A stretch of DNA of 36,728 bases from Armatimonadota bacterium (GTDB lineage: Bacteria; Armatimonadota; Chthonomonadetes; Chthonomonadales; Chthonomonadaceae): contig JAGWMJ010000018.1 of assembly GCA_028871815.1 (NCBI GenBank), positions 1 to 36,728 on the forward strand, read 5' to 3'. Positions 2,086-30,717 of this stretch are shown in pieces. Both the position numbers and the translations under genes were made by a program. The notes beneath the pieces were generated by a model. That model saw only the letters and a list, made by a program, of their open reading frames with translations. It was not told where the DNA came from and did not search any database. Position 1 is the stretch's first letter, and each line of letters opens with the position of its first letter.

Positions 2086-2178
2086 GTTCAACGGGGATAG
2101 GGCGAGGCGCGCCGGCGGCACGTCGATGAGTCGTCACCACGACGGTGGTTACTCTGGCGTGCCGTTACCCCGTTGAAC
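2086..2178. repeat. Nested inverted repeat between convergent genes
   Basis: The outer arms are a perfect 11-bp inverted repeat (GTTCAACGGGG at 2086-2096, CCCCGTTGAAC at 2168-2178). Inside lies CGGCACG...CGTGCCG (the right half ends at 2164), and in the centre GTCGT-CACC-ACGAC. The structure sits between two convergent genes, and its right arm covers the last codons of the dehydratase. There is no T-tract. It may act as a two-way transcription stop, or it may be a small palindromic mobile repeat. Confidence 0.55.
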
Positions 2179-4108
2179 GCAGGCGCCGCTCAATAGCCTC
2201 GGCATCATAAACGCAGCCGCCCCACACGCCGCCGCTGGCCCTCTGCAGCGCTGCCCAGAGTCGTGTGGCCTCCGGCAGGTCCGGGTCGGGCGCCATGGCG
2301 GCATGTGGATCACGGAGCGCCAACTGCGTTGCTCCCCAGTCGGCGCCATGCGTCACACCATTGGCGCCGACCAGGTTCAACCGGCCATCCAGGCTCGTCA
2401 GGTCCAGGTCTATTTCAATCACGTCGTCATCCTGCAGTCGGCCGATTGGACCTCCGGCCAGCCCTTCCGGACTGACGTGCCCGATGCACGCTCCTGTGCT
2501 GACGCCCGAGAAACGCGCATCGGTAATCACGGCAACGCGCCAGCCCCAGTCCAGATAGCGCAAGGCCGAGGTCACCTGGTAGATCTCTTCCATGCCGCAG
2601 CCCATTGGCCCACGCCCAATGAGAGTCACCACGTCGCCCGGCCGGATCGGCTCTGCCGCGCCGGTCGCCTTGATCGCGGCGACTGCGTCGCGCTCCGTTA
2701 CAAAAACGCGAGCGCGGCCGGTGATGCGATACCGGTTTCCGTTGACCAACGCCCGCGAATCGATCGCGGTGCTTTTGATCACGGCTCCCTCCGGCGCCAG
2801 ATTGCCCGTTGGGAAGCAAAGTGTCGGCGTCAGGCCAAGCTGGCGCGCCGCTGCGGGACTCATAATGACCCGGTCAGCCCGCACCCCGTCGGCATCCAGC
2901 AGCCGCTGTTTCAGGCAAGCCCGCCGCTCCGAGCGCTCCCACCGCTCAATGCGCTGCCGCAGCGTATTACCCTCAACCGTCAGGCATTCCAGATTCAGAA
3001 GCCCGGTATCTTTTAACGCGAGCATCACTTCAGGCACCCCGCCTGCCAGGTAGACCTGCACCGTCGGATGGCCTACCGGTCCGTTCGGCAGCGCGTCCAC
3101 GATCCTCGGGGTCATGCGGTTGACCTCACGCCAGTCGTCGACGCTCGGCCTGGTAAGCCCCGCGCAGAACGCGATTGCCGTCAGGTGCAGCAGGAGATTG
3201 GTGGATCCGCCAAACGCAGCGTGGATCACCATCGCGTTCCGAATCGCTGCCGGGGTTATCACATCGCACAGCCGCAGCCCGCGTTTCTCCATCGCCACCA
3301 CGGCTTCGGCCGTCCGGCGCGCAGTATCGTGCCAGATCGGCTGGCCGCTCGGCGCCAGCGCAGCATGGCAAACCGTGATGCCAAGCGCCTCGGCCACCAC
3401 CTGCGCCGTGGCGGCCGTACCCAGGAACTGGCAGCCACCGCCCGGAGTGGCGCACGTACGGCAGCCGATCTCTGAGGCCTCTTCTACCGTGAGCATCCCG
3501 TGGGCGAAGCGCGCGCCGATGGTCTGCGCCTTGCCGGCGTCTTCACCATCTTCGGCCGGCAGCGTCACGCCGCCGGGAATGAGCGCGCCGGCCAGAGATC
3601 CGGCTTCGGCAAGGGCCATCATCATCGCCGGCAGCCCTTTGTCGCACGTGGCGATTCCGATAACACCGCGGCGCTTCGGCAGGCTCCGGATGAGACGCCC
3701 GAAGACCGATACGGCATCGTTCCGGTAGGCCAGGCTGTCCATCATCCCTGCTGTGCCCTGCGTGCGACCGTCACAAGGGCCCGAGCAGAAGGCCGCATAC
3801 GGAATACAGCGCAGCTGCCACAGAACGCGCGCTGCGGTCTCCATCAAGAGCCCAACCTCCCAGTGGCCCGTATGGTAGCCAAGCGCCAGTGGCGCTCCAT
3901 CTGGCCGGCGGATGCCGCCCTGTGTGCTCAGCAGCAGGAACTCCGGAAGGCCGAGCGACTGTGGCGGCAGCCCCATGCCCACATCCTGGCTCCAGCCAAA
4001 CAGGTTGCCGCTCGGCTCATGGCGGAGCATCTCCGCGGTAAGCGGGAGCGCGCCCACAGGGCCGGTGGCGCGCGTTTGCACGTCGTAGATCGATGCGCGT
4101 TGCGTCAT
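2165..4108 (-). CDS. YjhG/YagF-family dehydratase, probable D-xylonate dehydratase
   Basis: The 647-aa product belongs to the IlvD/Edd iron-sulfur dehydratase superfamily. The cluster-ligand regions are visible: [11 protein letters not shown] (Cys112), TCDKGLPA (Cys155) and [13 protein letters not shown] (Cys226). The C-terminal half has the usual DARFSG...[14 protein letters not shown] block. The length and the [13 protein letters not shown] segment fit the E. coli YjhG/YagF branch (about 655 aa), which dehydrates D-xylonate to 2-dehydro-3-deoxy-D-xylonate, rather than IlvD proper (about 560-615 aa). The start is ATG 4108, with a weak ribosome-binding site. It is the last gene of a leftward run, 48 bases after the HEAT-TM gene, so it may be co-transcribed. 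No other xylonate-pathway gene is in the window, so the substrate is inferred from family; another sugar acid is possible. Confidence 0.85.
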
Positions 4109-7456: not shown

Positions 7457-7984
7457 CTACTCTGTTATTGCCGATTCGCCGCTCCTCCGTGCAGTTCCTT
7501 CAGCCGCGCTGACAGCCGCATCGCTTTCGATCACGTTGATCTCGCCATCCTCCTCCAGCACGGCATACGCTACCGTCGCCAGGTCATCGCACTCGCGTTC
7601 GCGGATCGCCTGAAGCACATCATCAATCGTAAGGCCGGTGCGCTTCAGGTTCTCTTCAACCGGCTGTCCATCGCGCACCAGTACGACCGCGCCTGCAGAT
7701 ACCAGCCGTCGAGCGGCCGGATAACGCAGCGCCAGTACGGCAATAATGCGGTTGGCTATTAGAAGGGTGGCGGCACACTCAAGGCCCGCCGGGAGCGACA
7801 CATCGCCGTGTACCATCGCCGTTTCAACAGCGCTGCCCAGAACCAGGATCACCGCAAGGTCTACGGCGCCGAGTTGCGCCGTGATGGAGCGGCCCAAAAC
7901 GCGAATCAAGCCGATCAGCACCGCGTAGATAACCAGCGTGCTGCCGACAACCGTTAATAGCTCATTGATTGAGCCGGCAATCAC
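7457..7984 (-). CDS. YetF/DUF421 family membrane protein
   Basis: The product is 175 aa. N-terminal transmembrane helices cover about residues 8-90 and contain the family-like segment LGRSITAQLGAVDLAVILVLGSAVE. A soluble domain follows with VVLVRDGQPVEENLKRTGLT and LATVAYAVLEEDGEINVIE, matching the DUF421 pattern of nucleotide-binding-like alpha/beta units. This is the most diverged of three copies here; it lacks the GKxELGQM motif of the other two. The family includes Bacillus YetF-type proteins, whose biochemical role is not settled. It diverges from the 8115 gene across a 130-bp region. Confidence 0.8.
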   Translation of the reverse strand: MIAGSINELLTVVGSTLVIYAVLIGLIRVLGRSITAQLGAVDLAVILVLGSAVETAMVHGDVSLPAGLECAATLLIANRIIAVLALRYPAARRLVSAGAVVLVRDGQPVEENLKRTGLTIDDVLQAIRERECDDLATVAYAVLEEDGEINVIESDAAVSAAEGTARRSGESAITE

Positions 7985-8114
7985 CAGGGCTCTCCTCTAT
8001 CGGAACTCAACGCCAATCTGCATCATCGTGGCAGCTGTTATCGCCGCCGCGAATATGCTGCCCGTTGTTTCACAATGATAGCTGTCCAACGGTTTCTCCG
8101 GTCCGGAGGCGCTT

Positions 8115-8657
8115 ATGCTGCATGAATGGCTGGCTCTGGTCTTCTCACATCCCTCAGCGCGTGGTTCCCTGGTCATCGCGGGCAAAACCAGCCTGATCTA
8201 TCTGTTCCTTATCATCGGCTTGCGCCTTCTGGGAAAGCGTGAACTGGGCCAGATGACCATTTACGACCTTGTCCTGATCATCATTCTGGCCAATGCCGTT
8301 CAAAATGCCATGGTCGGCTCCGACACCTCGCTGGCCGGCGGTATCGTGGCGGCTGGTACGCTGCTGCTCTTGAACCGCGCGCTCGCGGCTTTGATTATAC
8401 GCTCAGCTCGTGTACAGGCGGTTATGGTCGGCGGCCCACGGCTGATCGTGCACAACGGCAAGATGCTTCGCGACCGGATGGCGAAGGAGGGAATATCCCA
8501 GGAACAGGTCATGGCGGCCCTGCGCGAACATGGCATCAACGATATCTCGATGGTTCAAATGGCGGTTCTTGAGGTCGACGGCACCATCAGCGTGGTTCCG
8601 TCGGCAGCTGGAACGTTCCGGACGCGGCATCACTTCAGGGCGATGCGAATTGGCTGA
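8115..8657 (+). CDS. YetF/DUF421 family membrane protein
   Basis: The product is 180 aa from ATG 8115, with GGAGG about 6 bases upstream. N-terminal hydrophobic helices (about 20-95) contain LRLLGKRELGQMTIYDLVLII and ANAVQNAMVG, both hallmarks of the family. The C-terminal DUF421 domain reads PRLIVHNGKMLRDRM, then ALREHGINDISMVQMAVLEVDG and ISVVP. It is clearly paralogous to the next gene, which begins about 36 bases after its stop, so the two form an operon. Confidence 0.88.
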   Translation: MLHEWLALVFSHPSARGSLVIAGKTSLIYLFLIIGLRLLGKRELGQMTIYDLVLIIILANAVQNAMVGSDTSLAGGIVAAGTLLLLNRALAALIIRSARVQAVMVGGPRLIVHNGKMLRDRMAKEGISQEQVMAALREHGINDISMVQMAVLEVDGTISVVPSAAGTFRTRHHFRAMRIG

Positions 8658-8693
8658 TGCAGCCGCTTGGCCGGAATTGGGAGGTCGTGCGGG

Positions 8694-9206
8694 ATGACGC
8701 TGCCGTTTATCGTGTACCTCTCGGCGATAGCCGTCCGCACATTCATCATTCTCGTGGTGGTGGTGCTGGGCTTTCGCCTGCTAGGCAAAGGTGAACTCGG
8801 CCAGATGAACGTCTACGACCTTGCCATGGTGATGGCCGTGGCGAACGCCGTGCAGAACGCTATGACGAATGGCAGCGGCAACCTGACGGTGGGAATCACT
8901 TCGGCCACGGTTCTCATCACCGTTGGCTGGCTGACTGCCCGCCTTCTGTTCAGGCGCGGCAGCTTGCGACGTAGAGTTATCGGCGTGCCGACCGTGTTGG
9001 TGAGCCACGGGCGCATCTACCATCAGCGGCTGGCGCGCGAGCATATTCCTGAAGAGGAGCTTCGCTCGGCGCTGCGGCAGCATGGCATCCTCACAGCGCA
9101 ACAGGCGCGCCTCGTGGTGCTGGAGGTAGACGGCGCGCTCAGCGTTATTCCTGAGAAACGCGGCAAAGATTCCGGCGCTTCCACGATCGAGGACAAGGAT
9201 CTTTAG
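8694..9206 (+). CDS. YetF/DUF421 family membrane protein
   Basis: The product is 170 aa if started at ATG 8694, which has GGGAGG about 10 bases upstream; an in-frame TTG at 8667 would add nine residues and looks less likely. The membrane part includes FRLLGKGELGQMNVYDLAMV and ANAVQNAMTNG. The soluble part has PTVLVSHGRIYHQRLAREHI, ALRQHGI and ARLVVLEVDGALSVIPE. It is closest to the gene just upstream, suggesting a local duplication. The C-terminal tail is charged and short. Confidence 0.86.
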   Translation: MTLPFIVYLSAIAVRTFIILVVVVLGFRLLGKGELGQMNVYDLAMVMAVANAVQNAMTNGSGNLTVGITSATVLITVGWLTARLLFRRGSLRRRVIGVPTVLVSHGRIYHQRLAREHIPEEELRSALRQHGILTAQQARLVVLEVDGALSVIPEKRGKDSGASTIEDKDL

Positions 9207-20271: not shown

Positions 20272-20373
20272 CGCGTGCCGTTCCTTGATAACCGTTGTAA
20301 CCTCTGTGTACCAGACGTGTCGAATGTTGCATTCCGCTGACTTGACTGCCGCTTCTGTTTGTTCGGTTTTGCT

Positions 20374-22716
20374 ATGCGCAACGTAGGCCGCACTACTCTG
20401 CTGATGCTGGCGCCGGCGTCGCTGTTTTTGCTTGCGGCTCCGTTCGTTCCGCAGGCAGCGCCACGAGGCGCTCCAGGCTCTTTTGCCGCACAGGTGCAGC
20501 CATTCCTCAAGTCGTACTGCATCGCGTGCCACAGTGGTGCTCAACCGGCTGGCGGTCTCAACTTCACCCATTTCAGGTCAGTACCATCTGTCGTAAATGC
20601 CCGGGCCGAGTGGGAGAAGGTTATTCAGTACTTGCAAATCCGGCATATGCCACCGCCCGGCAGCGCGCAGCCTACCGACGCTGAACGCACCGCTCTCATC
20701 ACCTGGATACAGACAACGCTTGCCAATGCAAATTGTGTTGTTTCCGATCCGGGGCATGTAACGTTGCGACGCCTGAACCGCGCCGAGTACAACAACTCCG
20801 TGGAAAGCCTGCTCGGTGTCGACCTGCGCCCAGCCGACAACTTTCCCTCCGACGATGTCGGCTACGGTTTCGACAATATTGGCGATGTCCTCAGCATTTC
20901 GCCGCTTCTGATGGAGGACTATATGCGTGCCGCTCGGCAGCTGGCGCAAGCGGCCATCAACGCGCCCGACGCGACGCAGGCCTCCTCACAGATCGCCCCA
21001 GGCGAGTTTTCCGGCGGTGGCGCGGCGTTGGTAGATTCCGGCATCGAACTGGATACCAATGGAACGGCAACCGCGAAACATAACTTCCGCATCGGCGGAA
21101 GGTACCGGATCACCGTAACCGCGTATGGCGAGCAGGCCGGACCGGCGCCGGCGCATATGGCCGTCTCGCTCGATGGGGCGCCGATCGGCGACGTGGACGT
21201 TACCGCAGTAGCAGCCGCGCCCGCCTCCTACACGTTCCAGGCCGCAGTGACCCCGGGGCAGCACACGATTGGCGCCGCATTCACCAACGATTACTACAAT
21301 CCAAACGACCCGAATCCGGCGAACCGTGATCGCAACCTCATCATCTGCTCCGCGTCGATCTCGCCGCCTCTCGCCGGCTCGTTCCACCTGCCGCATATCA
21401 ACATGGAGTTGGCGTCGTATCGGAAAGCCGGCCTCGCACCAGCCGTGATCGCTCGCAAAATCCTCAGCCCGCTCGCGGCACACGCGTGGCGCCGTCCGGT
21501 TACCGCGGCTGAGGCGGCCCGTCTTGTGCACTACGTGGCGCTTGCGCAGTCGCACGGCGAAAGCTTCGAGCGCGGTCTGCAGCTGGGACTGGAGGCGATC
21601 CTGGTTTCGCCGAACTTCCTCTATCATGTGGAGATAACGCCACCGTCCCAAACCGGCGGGCTGCAGAAGCTTACAGACTACGAGATAGCCGCTCGACTCT
21701 CTTACTTCATCTGGAGCGACCTGCCCGACGCGGAGCTGACGGCTCTGGCGGCGGCAGGCAAGCTGCACCAACCTGCGGTTTTGGCTGAGCAGGTGCACCG
21801 AATGCTACTCGATCCGCGCGCCAGGGAACTGGGCAGCAACTTTGCCGCGCAGTGGCTGGAACTTCGGAACCTGAACACCGTGCGACCCGATCCGGCCCGA
21901 TTTCCCGAGTACGGTACGGGTCTGCGCGATGATGAACGTACCGAAACCGAGATGTTCTTCAACGATATCGTGCACAACGATCGCAGCGTTCTCAACTTCC
22001 TGAACGCCGATTACAGCTTCTTGAACAATCGGCTTGCCCGCTTTTATGGCCTCTCTGGTGTACATGGCGCCGATTTCCGCCGGGTTCAGCTCGCCGATGA
22101 CCGGCGCGGCGGTCTTGTGACGATGGCCAGCGTACTTACAGTGACCTCCGACCCAACTCGCACCTCGCCGGTCCAGCGTGGCAAATGGGTACTCGACAAC
22201 ATCCTGGGTACGCCACCACCGCCGCCTCCTGCCGTGGTGCCACGCCTGCCGGACGATACTTCCGGCACGGTGAAGGGCACCCTGCGCCAGCGAATGGAGA
22301 TTCACCGCAAGAATCCCGCGTGTGCATCGTGCCACAAACTGATGGACCCGATTGGATTCGGACTCGAGAACTTCGATGCAGTGGGTAGATGGCGGACCCA
22401 GGACGACCACCTTCCGGTGGACGCCTCCGGCACGCTGCCCGGAGGGCAGAGGTTTGATGGACCGGCGGAGTTGAAGGCGATTCTGCTGGCGCGCAAGGCG
22501 ATGTTCGTGCATTGCCTCACAACCAAGCTGTTCACCTACGCCTTGGGACGCGGGCCAACGGCTGCCGATGCCTGTGGCATCGACGCCATTTCCAAACAGG
22601 CGGAAGCGGCTAACTACCGCTTTAGCGCAATTGTTACCGGCATAGCGCAAAGCGTGCCATTTTTGGATACGGCGCCACAAAGCGCCGCACCCACAACGGT
22701 TGGGAGGAGATCATGA
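20374..22716 (+). CDS. DUF1587/DUF1592/DUF1588/DUF1585 cytochrome-like protein with carbohydrate-binding insert
   Basis: The product is 780 aa from ATG 20374 (TTG 20359 is an alternative), with a signal peptide to about residue 28. Cys49-x-x-Cys-His53 (CIACHSG) is a c-type heme site of planctomycete-cytochrome type. Next come DUF1587 (VTLRRLNRAEYNNSVESLLG), a beta-sandwich resembling the CBM60-like module (GGRYRITVTAYGEQ, PGQHTIGAAFTNDYYN), DUF1595, DUF1592 (LTDYEIAARLSYFIWSDLPD), DUF1588 (LLNN-type region then TSPVQRGKWVLDNILG) and DUF1585 (second CxxCH in ACASCHKLMDPIGFGLENFD). It is exported and probably redox-active; its reaction is unknown. It is coupled to the DUF1552 gene by an ATGA overlap. 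Confidence 0.92.
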   Translation: MRNVGRTTLLMLAPASLFLLAAPFVPQAAPRGAPGSFAAQVQPFLKSYCIACHSGAQPAGGLNFTHFRSVPSVVNARAEWEKVIQYLQIRHMPPPGSAQPTDAERTALITWIQTTLANANCVVSDPGHVTLRRLNRAEYNNSVESLLGVDLRPADNFPSDDVGYGFDNIGDVLSISPLLMEDYMRAARQLAQAAINAPDATQASSQIAPGEFSGGGAALVDSGIELDTNGTATAKHNFRIGGRYRITVTAYGEQAGPAPAHMAVSLDGAPIGDVDVTAVAAAPASYTFQAAVTPGQHTIGAAFTNDYYNPNDPNPANRDRNLIICSASISPPLAGSFHLPHINMELASYRKAGLAPAVIARKILSPLAAHAWRRPVTAAEAARLVHYVALAQSHGESFERGLQLGLEAILVSPNFLYHVEITPPSQTGGLQKLTDYEIAARLSYFIWSDLPDAELTALAAAGKLHQPAVLAEQVHRMLLDPRARELGSNFAAQWLELRNLNTVRPDPARFPEYGTGLRDDERTETEMFFNDIVHNDRSVLNFLNADYSFLNNRLARFYGLSGVHGADFRRVQLADDRRGGLVTMASVLTVTSDPTRTSPVQRGKWVLDNILGTPPPPPPAVVPRLPDDTSGTVKGTLRQRMEIHRKNPACASCHKLMDPIGFGLENFDAVGRWRTQDDHLPVDASGTLPGGQRFDGPAELKAILLARKAMFVHCLTTKLFTYALGRGPTAADACGIDAISKQAEAANYRFSAIVTGIAQSVPFLDTAPQSAAPTTVGRRS

Positions 22717-24059
22717 CAAGGCCACTATCACGCCGGACACTGTTGAAGGGCGCCGGCGTAACGATTGCATTGCCATTCTTGGAAGCCATGCTTCCAGCCG
22801 GCGCGCTTGCGGCTGAGGCGGTCAAAAAGCAGCCACAGCGGCTCGCATTTGTCTTTGTTCCAAACGGCGCCCATATGCCTGCCTGGACGCCCTCCACTAC
22901 CGGCGCCGGCTTCGATCTACCCAGCATCCTGGACCCGCTGGCCCAGTTCAAGTCGTCGCTCAATGTACTCACCGGCCTCACCCAGTACAACGCCAACGCC
23001 CTGGGCGATGGTGGCGGCGATCATGCCCGATCGGCAGCTGCGTGGCTTACCGGCTGCCACTGCAAGAAGACGGATGGGGCCGATATAAGGGCGGGTGTTT
23101 CGGTGGATCAGATTGCCGCGCAGCACGTAGGGAGCTCCACGATGCTGCCGTCACTTGAGATCGGCTGCACTCCGGGTGGCCAAAACGGCAACTGCGACAG
23201 CGGATACAGCTGCGCCTACACCAGCAATATCGCCTGGCAATCGCCAGACGCGCCGTTGGCGAAAGAGATCAATCCGCGGCTGGTGTTCCAGCGGCTGTTC
23301 GGCACGGCAGACGCGCCGGCGCAGTCACCCGCCGCTCGCGAACGGCGCACGCAGGATGACGAAAGCATTCTCGACTCGGTAATGAGCGACGCTCACTCGC
23401 TTCAGGCCAAACTCGGCTCCCGCGACCGCGGAAAGCTGGACGAGTACCTCACCGGCGTGCGCGAAGTGGAGCAGCGCATCAGCAGCTTTGAACGGGCGCG
23501 GAACAGTGCCGGCGTAAAGAACTATCCTGAACCGGCCGGCATTCCAACCGATTTCGGCGAGCATATGCGCCTCATGGCCGACATGATGCATATGGCGTTT
23601 CGGGCCGACCTGACGCGCGTCTGTACGTTTATGGTGGCCAACGACGGCAATAACCGCAGCTATCCTGAAGCGGGCGTGCCGGAGGGCCACCACGACATGT
23701 CGCATCATGGCGGCGATCCGGTGAAGCAGGACAAGATCCGCCGCATCAACCGCTTCCATATGGAGCAGTTTGCCTACCTGCTCGGCAAGCTCCAGGCCAC
23801 CGAGGAAGCCGGTGGTTCGCTGCTGGATAACTGCATGATCGTCTACGGCGCCGGGATCAGCGATGGCAACGCCCACAATCACGACAACCTGCCGATCCTG
23901 CTGGCAGGGCGTGGGGGTGGCACCATCCGCTCCGGGCGCCATGTGGTCTATACCGATGGCACGCCTATGACAAATCTCTTCCTCTGCCTTCTCGACCGGT
24001 TGGGCATTGGAGAGGACAAAGTGGGAGACAGCAGCGGCCGGCTGCAGCAGCTGGTTTAG
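22713..24059 (+). CDS. DUF1552 family Tat-exported protein
   Basis: The product is 448 aa. A Tat signal is clear: SRRTLLKG at residues 6-13, then a hydrophobic stretch and ALAAEA. The body matches DUF1552: FVFVPNGAHMPAWTP, GGGDHARSAAAWLTG, PSLEIGCTPGG, DEYLTGVREVEQRI and DLTRVCTFMVANDGNNRSYPE, ending in NAHNHDNLPILLAGRGGG. DUF1552 belongs to the alkaline-phosphatase/sulfatase-like neighbourhood and nearly always pairs with a DUF1592 protein, as here. GGGAGGAG precedes the ATG, which overlaps the stop of the upstream gene. Its partner's heme sites suggest a joint periplasmic oxidation system. Confidence 0.93.
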   Translation: MTRPLSRRTLLKGAGVTIALPFLEAMLPAGALAAEAVKKQPQRLAFVFVPNGAHMPAWTPSTTGAGFDLPSILDPLAQFKSSLNVLTGLTQYNANALGDGGGDHARSAAAWLTGCHCKKTDGADIRAGVSVDQIAAQHVGSSTMLPSLEIGCTPGGQNGNCDSGYSCAYTSNIAWQSPDAPLAKEINPRLVFQRLFGTADAPAQSPAARERRTQDDESILDSVMSDAHSLQAKLGSRDRGKLDEYLTGVREVEQRISSFERARNSAGVKNYPEPAGIPTDFGEHMRLMADMMHMAFRADLTRVCTFMVANDGNNRSYPEAGVPEGHHDMSHHGGDPVKQDKIRRINRFHMEQFAYLLGKLQATEEAGGSLLDNCMIVYGAGISDGNAHNHDNLPILLAGRGGGTIRSGRHVVYTDGTPMTNLFLCLLDRLGIGEDKVGDSSGRLQQLV

Positions 24060-25851: not shown

Positions 25852-28800
25852 ATGCCATTGCATTCCAGTGAGCCGGTGAGCCCAATCACGATTCGGAAGT
25901 CCGCGCGCACGAGCGGCGCCGATGTAACCGACAGCCTCTGTCCGTATTGCGCGGTGGGATGCGGGACGAAGATCTACACCCGAAAGGGCCAGATACTCAG
26001 CATCGAAGGAAACCCGGAGAGTCCGATCAACCGGGGCACATTGTGCCCGAAGGGCGCCAATAGCTTCCAATTGGCTGTAAACCCGCACCGCGTACTGCAT
26101 GCCCTCTACCGTGAGCCATTCGCGGCGGCGTGGCGGCGCGTTTCGCTCGATTGGGCCATGGAGCGGATCGCCCAGCATGTAAAAACGGCTCGCGATGCGG
26201 AACTCGACGCTGCAGTTCCCGGCGACCGGGCTGTTCGTTCCATCGCCACGCTAGGCGGCGCGACGCTGGATAATGAAGAGAACTACCTGATCAAGAAGCT
26301 CTTCACCGGCGGGCTGGGCGTACTCTCGGTCGAGAATCAGGCCCGCACTTGACATAGCGCCTCGGTGCCCGGTCTGGGCGCCAGCTTCGGTCGCGGCGCG
26401 GCCACCACATTTCCGGCCGATCTTGAGCACAGTGATTGCATCCTCGTCATGGGCTCCAACATGGCTGAGGCCCATCCCGTCGCCTTTCGTTGGCCGATGC
26501 TGGCGCGACGGCATGGAGCCAGGATTATCCATGTGGACCCGCGCTTTTCGCGGACTTCCGCCGTAGCGGATCTTCATGTCACGATCCGCGCCGGCTCCGA
26601 TATTGCATTTCTCGGAGCGCTCATTCACCAGGTTTTGACGCTGGACGGCTGGTTCCGTGAGTATGTCTGCGCGTATACCAACGCCAGCTTCGTTCTTGAC
26701 CCAAGGTTTCAGGATACCGAGGAAGGCGCAGGCCTGTTCAGTGGTTTCGATCCGGACAAAGGCGCCTACGACCCAACGGGCGCTACGTGGCAATATGAGC
26801 AGCGCGATGGCCAGCCGATTCGTGACCCTTCGCTTCACCACCCGCGATGCGTGTTCCAGGTGCTTTGCCGCCATTTTGCACGCTACACGGCCGAGGCCGC
26901 GGCCGCGATATGCGGCTGTACCGCCGAACAGATCACTGCTGTGGCGGAGCTCCTGATCGCCAACTCCGGCCGGGAGCGCACCTCCGCGATCTGCTATGCG
27001 GTCGGATGGACGCAGCATACAACGGGCGTGCAGATCATCCGCGCAGCCTCCATCCTGCAGTTGCTGCTTGGAAACATCGGGCGCCCGGGCGGCGGCGTCA
27101 TGGCCCTTCGCGGCCACGCAAGTATCCAGGGATCCACCGACCTGGCAACCCTCTCCGATCTGCTGCCGGGGTATCTGCCGCAGCCCACAACAGCGCCGAA
27201 GCACGCTTCGCTGAACGCCTGGGTCGATTTCGAGGGCCGCAAGACCGGCGGCTGGAGCAACGTCCGCAGCTTCATGGTCAGCCTCCTCAAAGCCTGGTAT
27301 GGGGATACGGCCTTTGCAGCCAATGACTTTGGGTACGACCGGCTGCCGAAGCTCGACGGCGACTACACGCAGCTTCCGTGCTTTCAGCGCATGGTGGATG
27401 GTTGCGTGCGCGGCCTGTTTCTGTTTGGCCAGAACCCGGCTGGTGGAGGGCCGAACGCGCGCCTGCACAGGGCCGGGCTACGCAGGCTCGACTGGCTGGT
27501 GGTCCGTGACTGGTTTGAAACCGAGAGCGCCGTATTCTGGCGGAGCGATCCTACCGGGCCGCCGCCGGAGGAGATCGGCACCGAGGTGTTCTTCCTGCCG
27601 GCGGCCGCCATCCCGGAGAAGGAGGGCAGCTTCACCAACACGCAGCGCCTCATTCAATGGCACGATCGGGCGATCGATCCTCCCGCTGATTGCCGGTCTG
27701 ACGCGTGGTTTGTGTACCAACTCGGCCTCCGCCTCCGCGAGTTGTATGCCGGCTCGGATTCGCCGTGCGCTGCCCCAATACGCGATCTCACGTGGCAGTA
27801 CGAGCCGCGCACTCCTACGCTCCTGGCCAACTCGGAGATAAGTCAGACGGTCGGCGATCCAGACCTTGAGGCGGTGCTGCAAGAGATCAACGGCGCCGGC
27901 CCGGGAGCGCCGGATGGTTCAGCACAGCCGCTGGCCAGCGCGGCCGAACTGCGCGACGACGGATCCACAGCGTGTGGATGCTGGATCTATACCGGCGTGA
28001 TGCCGGAAGCCGGTCACAACCGGGCACGAAGCCGCACTACCACCGGCGGCCGCGCGCAAGCCGACTGGGGATTCGCGTGGCCAGCAAACCGTCGGATACT
28101 CTACAACCGTGCCTCGGCAGACCCTGCCGGTAGGCCGTGGTCCGAACGAAAGCGGCTGATCTGGTGGGACCAGGCACGAGGTTCGTGGCAGGGCGACGAC
28201 GTGCCCGATTTTGACGCGGAGAAGCCGCCGGACTACCGGCCGTCCGGCGATGCTGCGGGTATGCAGGCGATTCCCGGTGACGGACCATTCATCATGCAGC
28301 CCGATGGATTGGCCTGCCTCTTTGTAACCAGGGGCCTCAAGGATGGTCCGCTGCCGGTACACTACGAGCCGGTGGAATCGCCGATGCCGAACCCTCTCTA
28401 CGCCCAGCAGGTTACGCCGGTGGTGCGCCGGTTTGAAGGTCCGCTGAACATGCTCGCATCCTCACCCAGCGCCGAATACCCGATAGTGGGGTGCACCTTT
28501 CGCCTCACGGAGCACTACCTGAGCGGACCGATGAGCCGCTTCAACAGCTGGCTGAACGAACTTCAGCCGGCAATGTTCGTGGAACTCGGTCCCGAGTTGG
28601 CGGCGGAGCGCGGCATCGAAAATGGAGGCTGGCTCACGGTATCCACAGTCCGGGCGAGCATCGAAGCCCGCGCGCTCGTCACCACGCGTCTTCAGCCCCT
28701 GAATCTGGATGGCCGTACCGTTCACCAGATTGGCGTACCGTTCCATTGGGGCTTTGCCGGTGAACGCGTCGGCAGCGCCGCGAATGATCTGACGTCGATG

Positions 28801-28980
28801 GTACTGGAGCCGAACGTTAGCATCCACGAAGGCAAAGTATTCGCCTGCAATGTCCGCGCCGGCCGCCTGGCCGGCCAGCCCAGGCTTCCGACGAAACGCT
28901 GGTCGCGCCGCCGGTCGCAAGAGGGCCGGCATCCGTCCGGATCGCGGCCTGAAGGTCAGTTTGGCGGTACGGATGATTAA
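25852..28980 (+). CDS. fdhA: Formate dehydrogenase catalytic subunit, selenocysteine-containing
   Basis: One reading frame of 1042 residues contains an in-frame TGA at 26350-26352, read as selenocysteine 167 in the context NQART-U-HSASVPGLGASFG. This is where FDH-N type enzymes carry Sec followed by His. The N-terminal 4Fe-4S site is CPYCAVGCG...GTLCPKGA. The molybdopterin domains continue with LVMGSNMAEAHP and HVDPRFSRTSAVADLH, and the C-terminal MGD-binding domain with FRLTEHY. It oxidises formate to CO2 at a Mo- or W-bis-MGD centre. There is no Tat or other signal at the N-terminus, even in the upstream frame, unlike E. coli FdnG. AAGGA lies about 7 bases before the ATG. It is the first gene of a three-gene operon. 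Confidence 0.95.
26364..26382 (+). promoter_or_regulatory. SECIS element for UGA recoding
   Basis: Starting 11 bases after the TGA, GGTGCCC (26364-26370) pairs with GGGCGCC (26376-26382) through seven pairs (one G-U), closing the loop GGUCU. The spacing and the GGUCU loop are those of the E. coli fdhF SECIS that recruits SelB. It lies inside the coding sequence and is translated. Confidence 0.9.
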
Positions 28981-29791
28981 CGCCATCAGGCGCCTGTTCC
29001 AGCGTACCGCGCCTGCCGACGCGCCTGTGGAGCGCGAGCAGACCGGCTTCTTTACCGACACCACCCTCTGTATCGGCTGCAAGGCGTGTGAGGTTGCCTG
29101 CAAGCAGTGGAATCAGCTGCCTGCCGATGGAATGCGCTTCTCGGGCCGCAGCTACGACAACACGATCGAGCTTTCTGCCACTACGTGGCGGCACGTGGCC
29201 TTTATTGAGCAGCCGGCGCCCGGCGGCCCGCCGGCATGGTTGATGATGAGCGACGTTTGCAAGCATTGCAACAACGCTCCATGCCGGGAGGCGTGTCCCA
29301 CTGGAGCGATCATTACGAACGAGTTCGGCTCGGTGTATATACAGCCGGATGTGTGCAACGGATGTGGCTACTGCATTTCGGCATGCCCGTTCGGCGTAAT
29401 CGGGCGAAGCGCTGAAGATGGCCACGCGCACAAGTGCACGATGTGTTACGACCGGCAGCGTAATGGCATGACTCCGGCATGCGCGCAGACATGCCCCACA
29501 GAATCGATTCAGTTTGGCCCGATCGAGGAGCTGCGGCATCGCGCACGGGCTCGGCTCGATGCGCTGCGATCAGCGGGTGTGGAGGCCGGCCTGTACGGTG
29601 CGGAACCTTCCGACAGATATGGCGCCATGAACGCGTTCTTTCTGCTGACCGACGCGCCCGAAGTGTACGGCCTGCCGTCCGATCCGGTTCGGCCATCTCG
29701 CGGTATGGCGCGCCGCTATGGTGTGAGCCTGTTGGCCGGTATCGGGCTCACGGCTCTGGCCGCCATGCTTCTGCGTGGAAATCGCGCTTGA
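28973..29791 (+). CDS. fdhB: Formate dehydrogenase iron-sulfur subunit
   Basis: The product is 272 aa from ATG 28973, overlapping the end of the catalytic gene by 8 bases; a frame extending upstream has no family similarity. Four ferredoxin-like Cys groups are visible: CIGCKACEVACKQW, CKHCNNAPCREACP, CNGCGYCISACPFG and CTMCYDRQ...CAQTCP, so four 4Fe-4S clusters, as in FdnH-type subunits. A hydrophobic helix near the C-terminus (VSLLAGIGLTALAAMLL) would anchor it in the membrane. It passes electrons from the catalytic subunit to the membrane partner. Confidence 0.94.
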   Translation: MINAIRRLFQRTAPADAPVEREQTGFFTDTTLCIGCKACEVACKQWNQLPADGMRFSGRSYDNTIELSATTWRHVAFIEQPAPGGPPAWLMMSDVCKHCNNAPCREACPTGAIITNEFGSVYIQPDVCNGCGYCISACPFGVIGRSAEDGHAHKCTMCYDRQRNGMTPACAQTCPTESIQFGPIEELRHRARARLDALRSAGVEAGLYGAEPSDRYGAMNAFFLLTDAPEVYGLPSDPVRPSRGMARRYGVSLLAGIGLTALAAMLLRGNRA

Positions 29792-30717
29792 GCGCGCCGT
29801 CGTTTCTCAAGAAGCCGGTCTGGACGTGGGAGGTGCCGGCCTACTTCTTCCTTGGCGGCCTGTCGGCCGGCGCCTATCTCTTATCGCGTGCAGCTTCGGC
29901 AGGTACACGGAAATACCGCGGCGTGGCCAAATCCGGCCTGATAGTCGCCGTCGTCGCACTTCTGCCGTGCCCGGCGCTGCTGGTGAGTGACCTGGGTGAT
30001 CCCCGGCGCTTCCACCACATGCTGCGTGTTTTCAAGCCGGTGTCGCCGATGAACCTCGGCGCCTGGACGCTTGTCGTCTACTCCAGCGCCGTCGTGACCG
30101 CGCTTGCGGCGGAGCGGCCGTTCCGCGCGGCCCGTGCCGCTGGGTCCTATGCGGATACTGTCGGCGTGCCGGCGGCGTTACTGTTGGCGGGTTACACCGG
30201 CGTGCTGCTGAGCACCACGGCCAACCCGGCTTGGGCCGGCAACCCATGGATCGGTCCGCTGTTCAGCGCTGGAGCTATTGCGGCGGGCGCCGACGCGATC
30301 GAACTGGTGCGTGAGGTCGCTGGAGGGAGCGAATCCGAGTTATCGGCCGTGCGCGGCGTCGCCAGTGCTGCCCGCGTCGTTGAGGCAGCCACACTGGCCG
30401 CAACTCTACGCACAGCCGCTCAACATGCGCCGGGCGCCCTGCGACCTCGGCAAACACGCTGGACGCTTGTCGCCGCCGTGGTTGGCATCGTCCTCCCGGC
30501 CGTACTGGAGCTGCTTCCAGTGGCAAACCCCCGGCTGCGCCGATCGCTGCGCGCTGCCGGATGCGCGGTCGGCCTTGCCGGCGGAGCTGCGCTTCGATTC
30601 GCCGTGGTGGAGATGGGCCGTAATTCGATAACCGAGGCTGGGCTTGCCGCAAGGGACGTTGAAGCCGTAAAGGAGAACACGCGCGGCCTCGGTGAAGATC
30701 GCTCCTCGCGGCAATGA
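29788..30717 (+). CDS. NrfD/PsrC-type membrane anchor subunit
   Basis: The product is 309 aa from TTG 29788, which overlaps the stop of the iron-sulfur gene (TTGA). The open frame extends upstream, but similarity starts at VWTWEVPAYFFLGGLSAGAYL, the typical first helix of NrfD proteins. About eight hydrophobic helices follow, with the family-like LVSDLGDPRRFHHMLRVFKPVSPMN and a late loop SSRQ at the end. It would be the quinone-reactive membrane subunit, in place of the cytochrome b subunit (FdnI) of E. coli FDH-N. No heme-binding His pattern is needed in this type. Confidence 0.88.
   Translation: MSAPSFLKKPVWTWEVPAYFFLGGLSAGAYLLSRAASAGTRKYRGVAKSGLIVAVVALLPCPALLVSDLGDPRRFHHMLRVFKPVSPMNLGAWTLVVYSSAVVTALAAERPFRAARAAGSYADTVGVPAALLLAGYTGVLLSTTANPAWAGNPWIGPLFSAGAIAAGADAIELVREVAGGSESELSAVRGVASAARVVEAATLAATLRTAAQHAPGALRPRQTRWTLVAAVVGIVLPAVLELLPVANPRLRRSLRAAGCAVGLAGGAALRFAVVEMGRNSITEAGLAARDVEAVKENTRGLGEDRSSRQ

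What the first reader, a model, noticed from the sequence alone, without database searches (positions are those of the whole stretch)
25852..28980. In-frame UGA with a textbook SECIS makes this a selenoprotein formate dehydrogenase
Seen directly: the frame on both sides of TGA 26350 is the same, the flanking residues are those around the FDH active site, and a 7-bp hairpin with loop GGUCU lies 11 bases downstream. Ordinary gene callers would split the gene in two or call it a pseudogene. It also implies that the genome encodes SelA, SelB, SelD and tRNA-Sec, which are not in this window.
Basis: partly seen in the sequence, partly recalled or inferred. Interest (0 to 1): 0.75.

Follow-up and report, generated by a model that had tools for sequence, protein, structure and literature searches.

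The report
Selenocysteine-containing formate dehydrogenase gene
This gene encodes an ordinary bacterial formate dehydrogenase in which one internal "stop" codon is read as selenocysteine; the genome carries all the needed machinery, so the finding is correct but of a well-known kind.

Summary
Confirmed. One frame (window 25852-28980, 1042 residues) is interrupted only by TGA at 26350-26352, codon 167. Eleven bases later comes a perfect 7-bp hairpin with loop GGUCU. Homology runs at 55-63% identity through both sides of the TGA, and residue 167 falls on the Sec of solved Sec-FDHs. Of 78 scorable public relatives, 69 have TGA at this codon and 9 have Cys codons. With the window and two phylum relatives added (71 TGA, 10 Cys), the loop motif RGTYT is in 70 of 71 TGA genes and in 0 of 10 Cys genes. 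The window's own genome encodes SelA, SelB, SelD (itself with an in-frame TGA), tRNA-Sec with anticodon UCA, and FdhD. Two relatives in the same phylum behave as expected: one with SelA has a TGA-FDH, one without a SelA match has a Cys-FDH. Neighbouring genes show that the contig belongs to this genome. The operon is FDH alpha, Fe-S beta, NrfD-like membrane subunit. FDH alpha is the most widespread bacterial selenoprotein, so this is a new member of a known kind. Its one mildly interesting feature is distribution: it is the only gene of this family found in its order (31 genomes sampled), with nearest kin in other phyla.

The parts
25852..28980 (+). fdhA/fdnG-type formate dehydrogenase alpha subunit, 1042 aa with Sec at residue 167
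   Evidence: TIGR01553 949.9 bits (cut-off 814.2) and NF041513 1389.9 bits (cut-off 1400); Pfam Molybdop_Fe4S4, Molybdopterin, Molydop_binding; PDB Sec-FDHs E about 1e-222
26350..26352 (+). in-frame UGA, Sec codon 167
   Evidence: same frame on both sides; TGA in 69 of 78 scorable public relatives, Cys codon in the other 9
26364..26382 (+). bacterial SECIS hairpin: 7-bp stem (26364-26370 with 26376-26382), loop GGUCU 26371-26375
   Evidence: fold and comparison of 71 TGA and 10 Cys genes
28973..29791 (+). formate dehydrogenase beta (iron-sulfur) subunit, overlaps the end of the alpha gene
   Evidence: TIGR01582 E 1.5e-49, Fer4_11; start ATG 28973 chosen by reading
29788..30717 (+). NrfD-family membrane subunit (start approximate; listed ORF opens at 29479)
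   Evidence: PF03916 E 4.9e-21 over ORF residues 114-382

Best explanation
The gene encodes the catalytic alpha subunit of a molybdenum- or tungsten-dependent formate dehydrogenase with selenocysteine as the metal ligand at residue 167. During translation, SelB carries Sec-tRNA(UCA) to the UGA by binding the hairpin at 26364-26382. SelA makes the Sec-tRNA from seryl-tRNA using selenophosphate from SelD. The enzyme oxidises formate to CO2 and probably passes electrons through the iron-sulfur beta subunit to the NrfD-like membrane subunit and the quinone pool. Shown by sequence: the reading frame, the homology, the SECIS and the complete set of machinery genes. Inferred: actual Sec insertion, the metal, the direction of catalysis and the electron acceptor.
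For: Homology is continuous across the TGA. Codon 167 aligns to the Sec/X position of a Sec-FDH structure (8cm4: ARIXHSPTV against ARTCHSASV). 71 genes have TGA, 70 of them with loop RGTYT and 50 with all 7 pairs; 10 Cys genes have 0 such loops and none has 7 pairs; mean MFE is -12.2 against -5.8 kcal/mol. Stem pairs 4, 5 and 7 occur as different Watson-Crick pairs in different genes. selA is at C10 (TIGR00474, 464.7 bits), selB at C3 (353.3 bits), selD at C10 (349 bits), tRNA-Sec with anticodon TCA at C4 (69.9 bits), FdhD at C5 (204.5 bits). The phylum relatives G034 (SelA present, TGA) and G084 (no SelA match, Cys) behave as expected. The contig belongs to the genome: its neighbours have orthologues at 55-67% and 47-52% in the family and order.
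Against: There is no experimental evidence of Sec. The machinery genes lie on other contigs of a 22-contig assembly (98.3% complete), not beside the FDH. In the tRNA-Sec as read by eye, the eighth acceptor pair appears to be G-G, which was not examined further. TGA genes are related to each other, so the counts are not independent.
Confidence: 0.97

Rival explanations
1. The TGA is a genuine stop: the gene is a pseudogene or split gene, or the TGA is a sequencing error for TGC/TGT.
For: Standard ORF finding gives two ORFs.
Against: The only in-frame interruption in 1042 codons falls on the known Sec position. 69 of 78 scorable public relatives have TGA there, with a conserved hairpin that the Cys forms lack. 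Conservation is high on both sides of the TGA. The full Sec machinery is present.
Confidence: 0.01
2. The contig is misbinned, so the Sec-FDH and the Sec machinery belong to different organisms.
For: No genome of the same family or order sampled here has this FDH; FDH and sel genes are on different contigs.
Against: Two other genes of the window have orthologues throughout the family and order. G+C is even across the window (60-64%) and matches the selA/selD locus (62-63%). SelA is common in the family.
Confidence: 0.02

Closest known systems
Formate dehydrogenase-N alpha subunit family (TIGR01553; E. coli FdnG 1KQF; Sec-FDH 8cm4/6sdr)
   Same: Length, Fe4S4 plus molybdopterin domains, Sec at the metal ligand, adjoining Fe-S beta subunit
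   Different: No twin-arginine signal is seen at the N-terminus (MPLHSSEPVSPITIRKSART...), so it is probably cytoplasmic; the membrane partner is NrfD-like rather than a cytochrome b gamma subunit
NF041513 formate dehydrogenase (formate_DH_Act)
   Same: Best NCBIfam match by score, 1389.9 bits
   Different: Falls just below the curated cut-off of 1400 bits
Bacterial SECIS element of FDH mRNAs (E. coli fdhF/fdnG type)
   Same: Stem-loop in the coding region just after the UGA, small loop starting with G, spacing within the published model
   Different: Nothing of substance
FDHs of Ca. Eremiobacterota L021, Ca. Laterigemmans L059, Aquisphaera L022, Acidobacteriota L024/L065/L074
   Same: Sec codon, SECIS, beta and (in those checked) NrfD genes downstream; 56-63% identity
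   Different: Other phyla; L059 also has selA and selB beside the FDH, whereas the window does not

Membership tests
Formate dehydrogenase alpha (FDH-N type, TIGR01553) | Score above curated cut-off over the full length | tested here: met
   949.9 against 814.2 bits, residues 18-1001
Formate dehydrogenase alpha (FDH-N type, TIGR01553) | Sec/Cys metal ligand followed by catalytic His | tested here: met
   U167-H168 aligned with Sec-His of 8cm4
Formate dehydrogenase alpha (FDH-N type, TIGR01553) | Formate oxidation activity, Mo/W cofactor | not testable with these tools
   FdhD accessory gene present; activity needs assay
NF041513 formate_DH_Act | Score above curated cut-off | tested here: not met
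   1389.9 against 1400 bits; a near miss
Bacterial selenoprotein | In-frame UGA at a position that is Cys in homologues | tested here: met
   9 public Cys homologues plus G084
Bacterial selenoprotein | bSECIS: 3-9 nt loop, 4-16 bp stem, G in the first two loop positions, 16-37 nt from UGA to loop, MFE <= -7.5 | tested here: met
   5-nt loop GGUCU, 7 bp, 18 nt to the loop, -13.3 kcal/mol (model from PMC13188914)
Bacterial selenoprotein | selA, selB, selC, selD in the genome | tested here: met
Bacterial selenoprotein | Se shown in the protein | not testable with these tools
   needs mass spectrometry

The most novel reading that the evidence does not exclude
In a lineage that already had Sec decoding (SelA in many relatives, apparently kept for other selenoproteins such as Sec-SelD), this Sec-FDH operon was gained by transfer from another phylum without the sel genes. 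That would depart from the usual co-transfer of fdhA with selABC.
Probability: 0.35. Interest if true: 0.3.

Novelty: new member of a known kind. Interest (0 to 1): 0.15.

Why it matters
It corrects an annotation: the gene should be one 1042-residue selenoprotein, not two fragments. It adds a formate-oxidising enzyme to this organism's metabolism. It does not change any general idea; FDH alpha and SelD are the two commonest bacterial selenoproteins (822 and 383 organisms in PMC5029168).

Tried and rejected
An Rfam scan of the window at gathering thresholds found nothing, so the SECIS was judged by direct folding and comparison. The tRNA call in the window at 799-886 with a 4-base anticodon lies inside an ORF with beta-propeller matches; it is weak and unrelated. 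In the phylum relative G084 the two TGA codons reported inside its match lie past the end of the homologous protein, one of them probably its own stop; its active site codon is TGC. A full census of other selenoproteins in this genome was not made.

Full report
Observation. The frame from ATG 25852 to the stop ending at 28980 holds one interruption, TGA 26350-26352, codon 167. Eleven bases further, GGTGCCC GGTCT GGGCGCC (26364-26382) folds as a 7-bp hairpin with a 5-nt loop. With the protein fixed and codons drawn synonymously from the gene's usage, 1.0% of 200,000 sequences have both the 7-bp stem and the GGTCT loop. By itself the hairpin is therefore only moderately unlikely; the rest of the evidence decides.

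Identity. Read through, the protein matches TIGR01553 (formate dehydrogenase-N alpha, 949.9 bits, cut-off 814.2) over residues 18-1001, and NF041513 at 1389.9 bits, just under its cut-off of 1400. The closest solved structures are Sec-containing FDHs (E about 1e-222), and residue 167 sits on their Sec. The next gene, overlapping by 8 bases, is the Fe-S beta subunit (28973-29791), followed by an NrfD-family membrane subunit. Of the 81 FDH loci compared, 71 have a beta-subunit match and 37 an NrfD match.

Comparative test. 79 loci from genome contigs were fetched. 78 could be scored: 69 with TGA, 5 TGC, 4 TGT at the aligned codon. Adding the window and phylum relatives G034 and G084 gives 71 TGA and 10 Cys. 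Among TGA genes the loop is GGTCT (51), AGTCT (14), AGTTT (5) or GCTCT (1), and 50 have all seven pairs. Among Cys genes no loop fits RGTYT and none has seven pairs. Mean hairpin energies are -12.2 and -5.8 kcal/mol. Pairs 4, 5 and 7 appear as several different Watson-Crick pairs. Where the codon is Cys the hairpin is absent or decayed, which is what selection for SECIS function predicts. On a tree of 74 proteins, built with the Sec column blanked, the Sec/Cys label needs 3 changes.

Machinery. The same genome (22 contigs, 98.3% complete) has SelA (C10; TIGR00474 464.7 bits), SelB (C3; 353.3 bits, full length), SelD (C10, beside SelA; 349 bits), tRNA-Sec with anticodon UCA (C4; 69.9 bits, gathering score 47) and FdhD (C5). 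SelD itself has an in-frame TGA at its active-site position (VRCAG-U-AAKIG). The predicted hairpin after it has a loop starting with G, 33 nt after the UGA, within the published 16-37 nt range.

Is the contig in the right genome? Two other genes of the window have orthologues across the family and order at 55-67% (peptidase C1-like) and, for the best hits, 47-52% (PSD/cytochrome protein). G+C is even and equal to the selA/selD region.

Distribution. Among 101 genomes (own plus 100 relatives), a full-length FDH of this family was found only in G000, G034 and G084, although SelA is matched in 55 of 101, a few of them weakly. G034 has SelA and TGA; G084 has no SelA match and a TGC codon. On the tree the window's FDH groups with an Eremiobacterota MAG, then Planctomycetota and G034, then Acidobacteriota and Binatota. 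Gain by transfer or repeated loss are both possible; long end branches make the exact placement unsure, and no transfer test was made.

Known or new. FDH alpha is the commonest bacterial selenoprotein and SelD the second (PMC5029168; PMC1794560). Sec to Cys change in FDH is also documented (PMC1794560). This is an ordinary new member. The only point worth a specialist's glance is the patchy presence of the FDH in a lineage where SelA is common.

Mechanism, shown and inferred. Shown by sequence: frame, homology, hairpin, complete machinery. Inferred from established knowledge of the family: Sec insertion by SelB at the UGA; formate oxidation at a Mo or W centre; electron transfer by the beta clusters and NrfD subunit to quinone; cytoplasmic location, from the lack of a visible twin-arginine signal.

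Noticed in passing
G000:C10:75272-76213 (L010, minus strand; TGA in GGTTGAGCCGCCAAAATC): SelD is itself a probable selenoprotein with an in-frame TGA and a predicted hairpin 33 nt downstream; selA lies directly upstream.
   Followed up: partly
L129 (G084, same phylum): A Cys (TGC) form of the same FDH family in a genome with no SelA match.
   Followed up: partly
L059: In Ca. Laterigemmans (Planctomycetota) selA and selB homologues lie just upstream of the FDH operon, unlike in the window.
   Followed up: no
window 7457-9206: Three small genes with the YetF C-terminal domain (DUF421) close together, one on the minus and two on the plus strand.
   Followed up: no
window 20359-24059: A PSD/PSCyt multi-domain gene (with a CBM60-like insert) followed by a DUF1552 gene; the first has many paralogues in some relatives.
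   Followed up: no
window 2165-4108: YjhG/YagF-family D-xylonate dehydratase on the minus strand.
   Followed up: no
L013 1501-1600: In the tRNA-Sec, by eye, the eighth acceptor-stem pair appears to be G-G.
   Followed up: no
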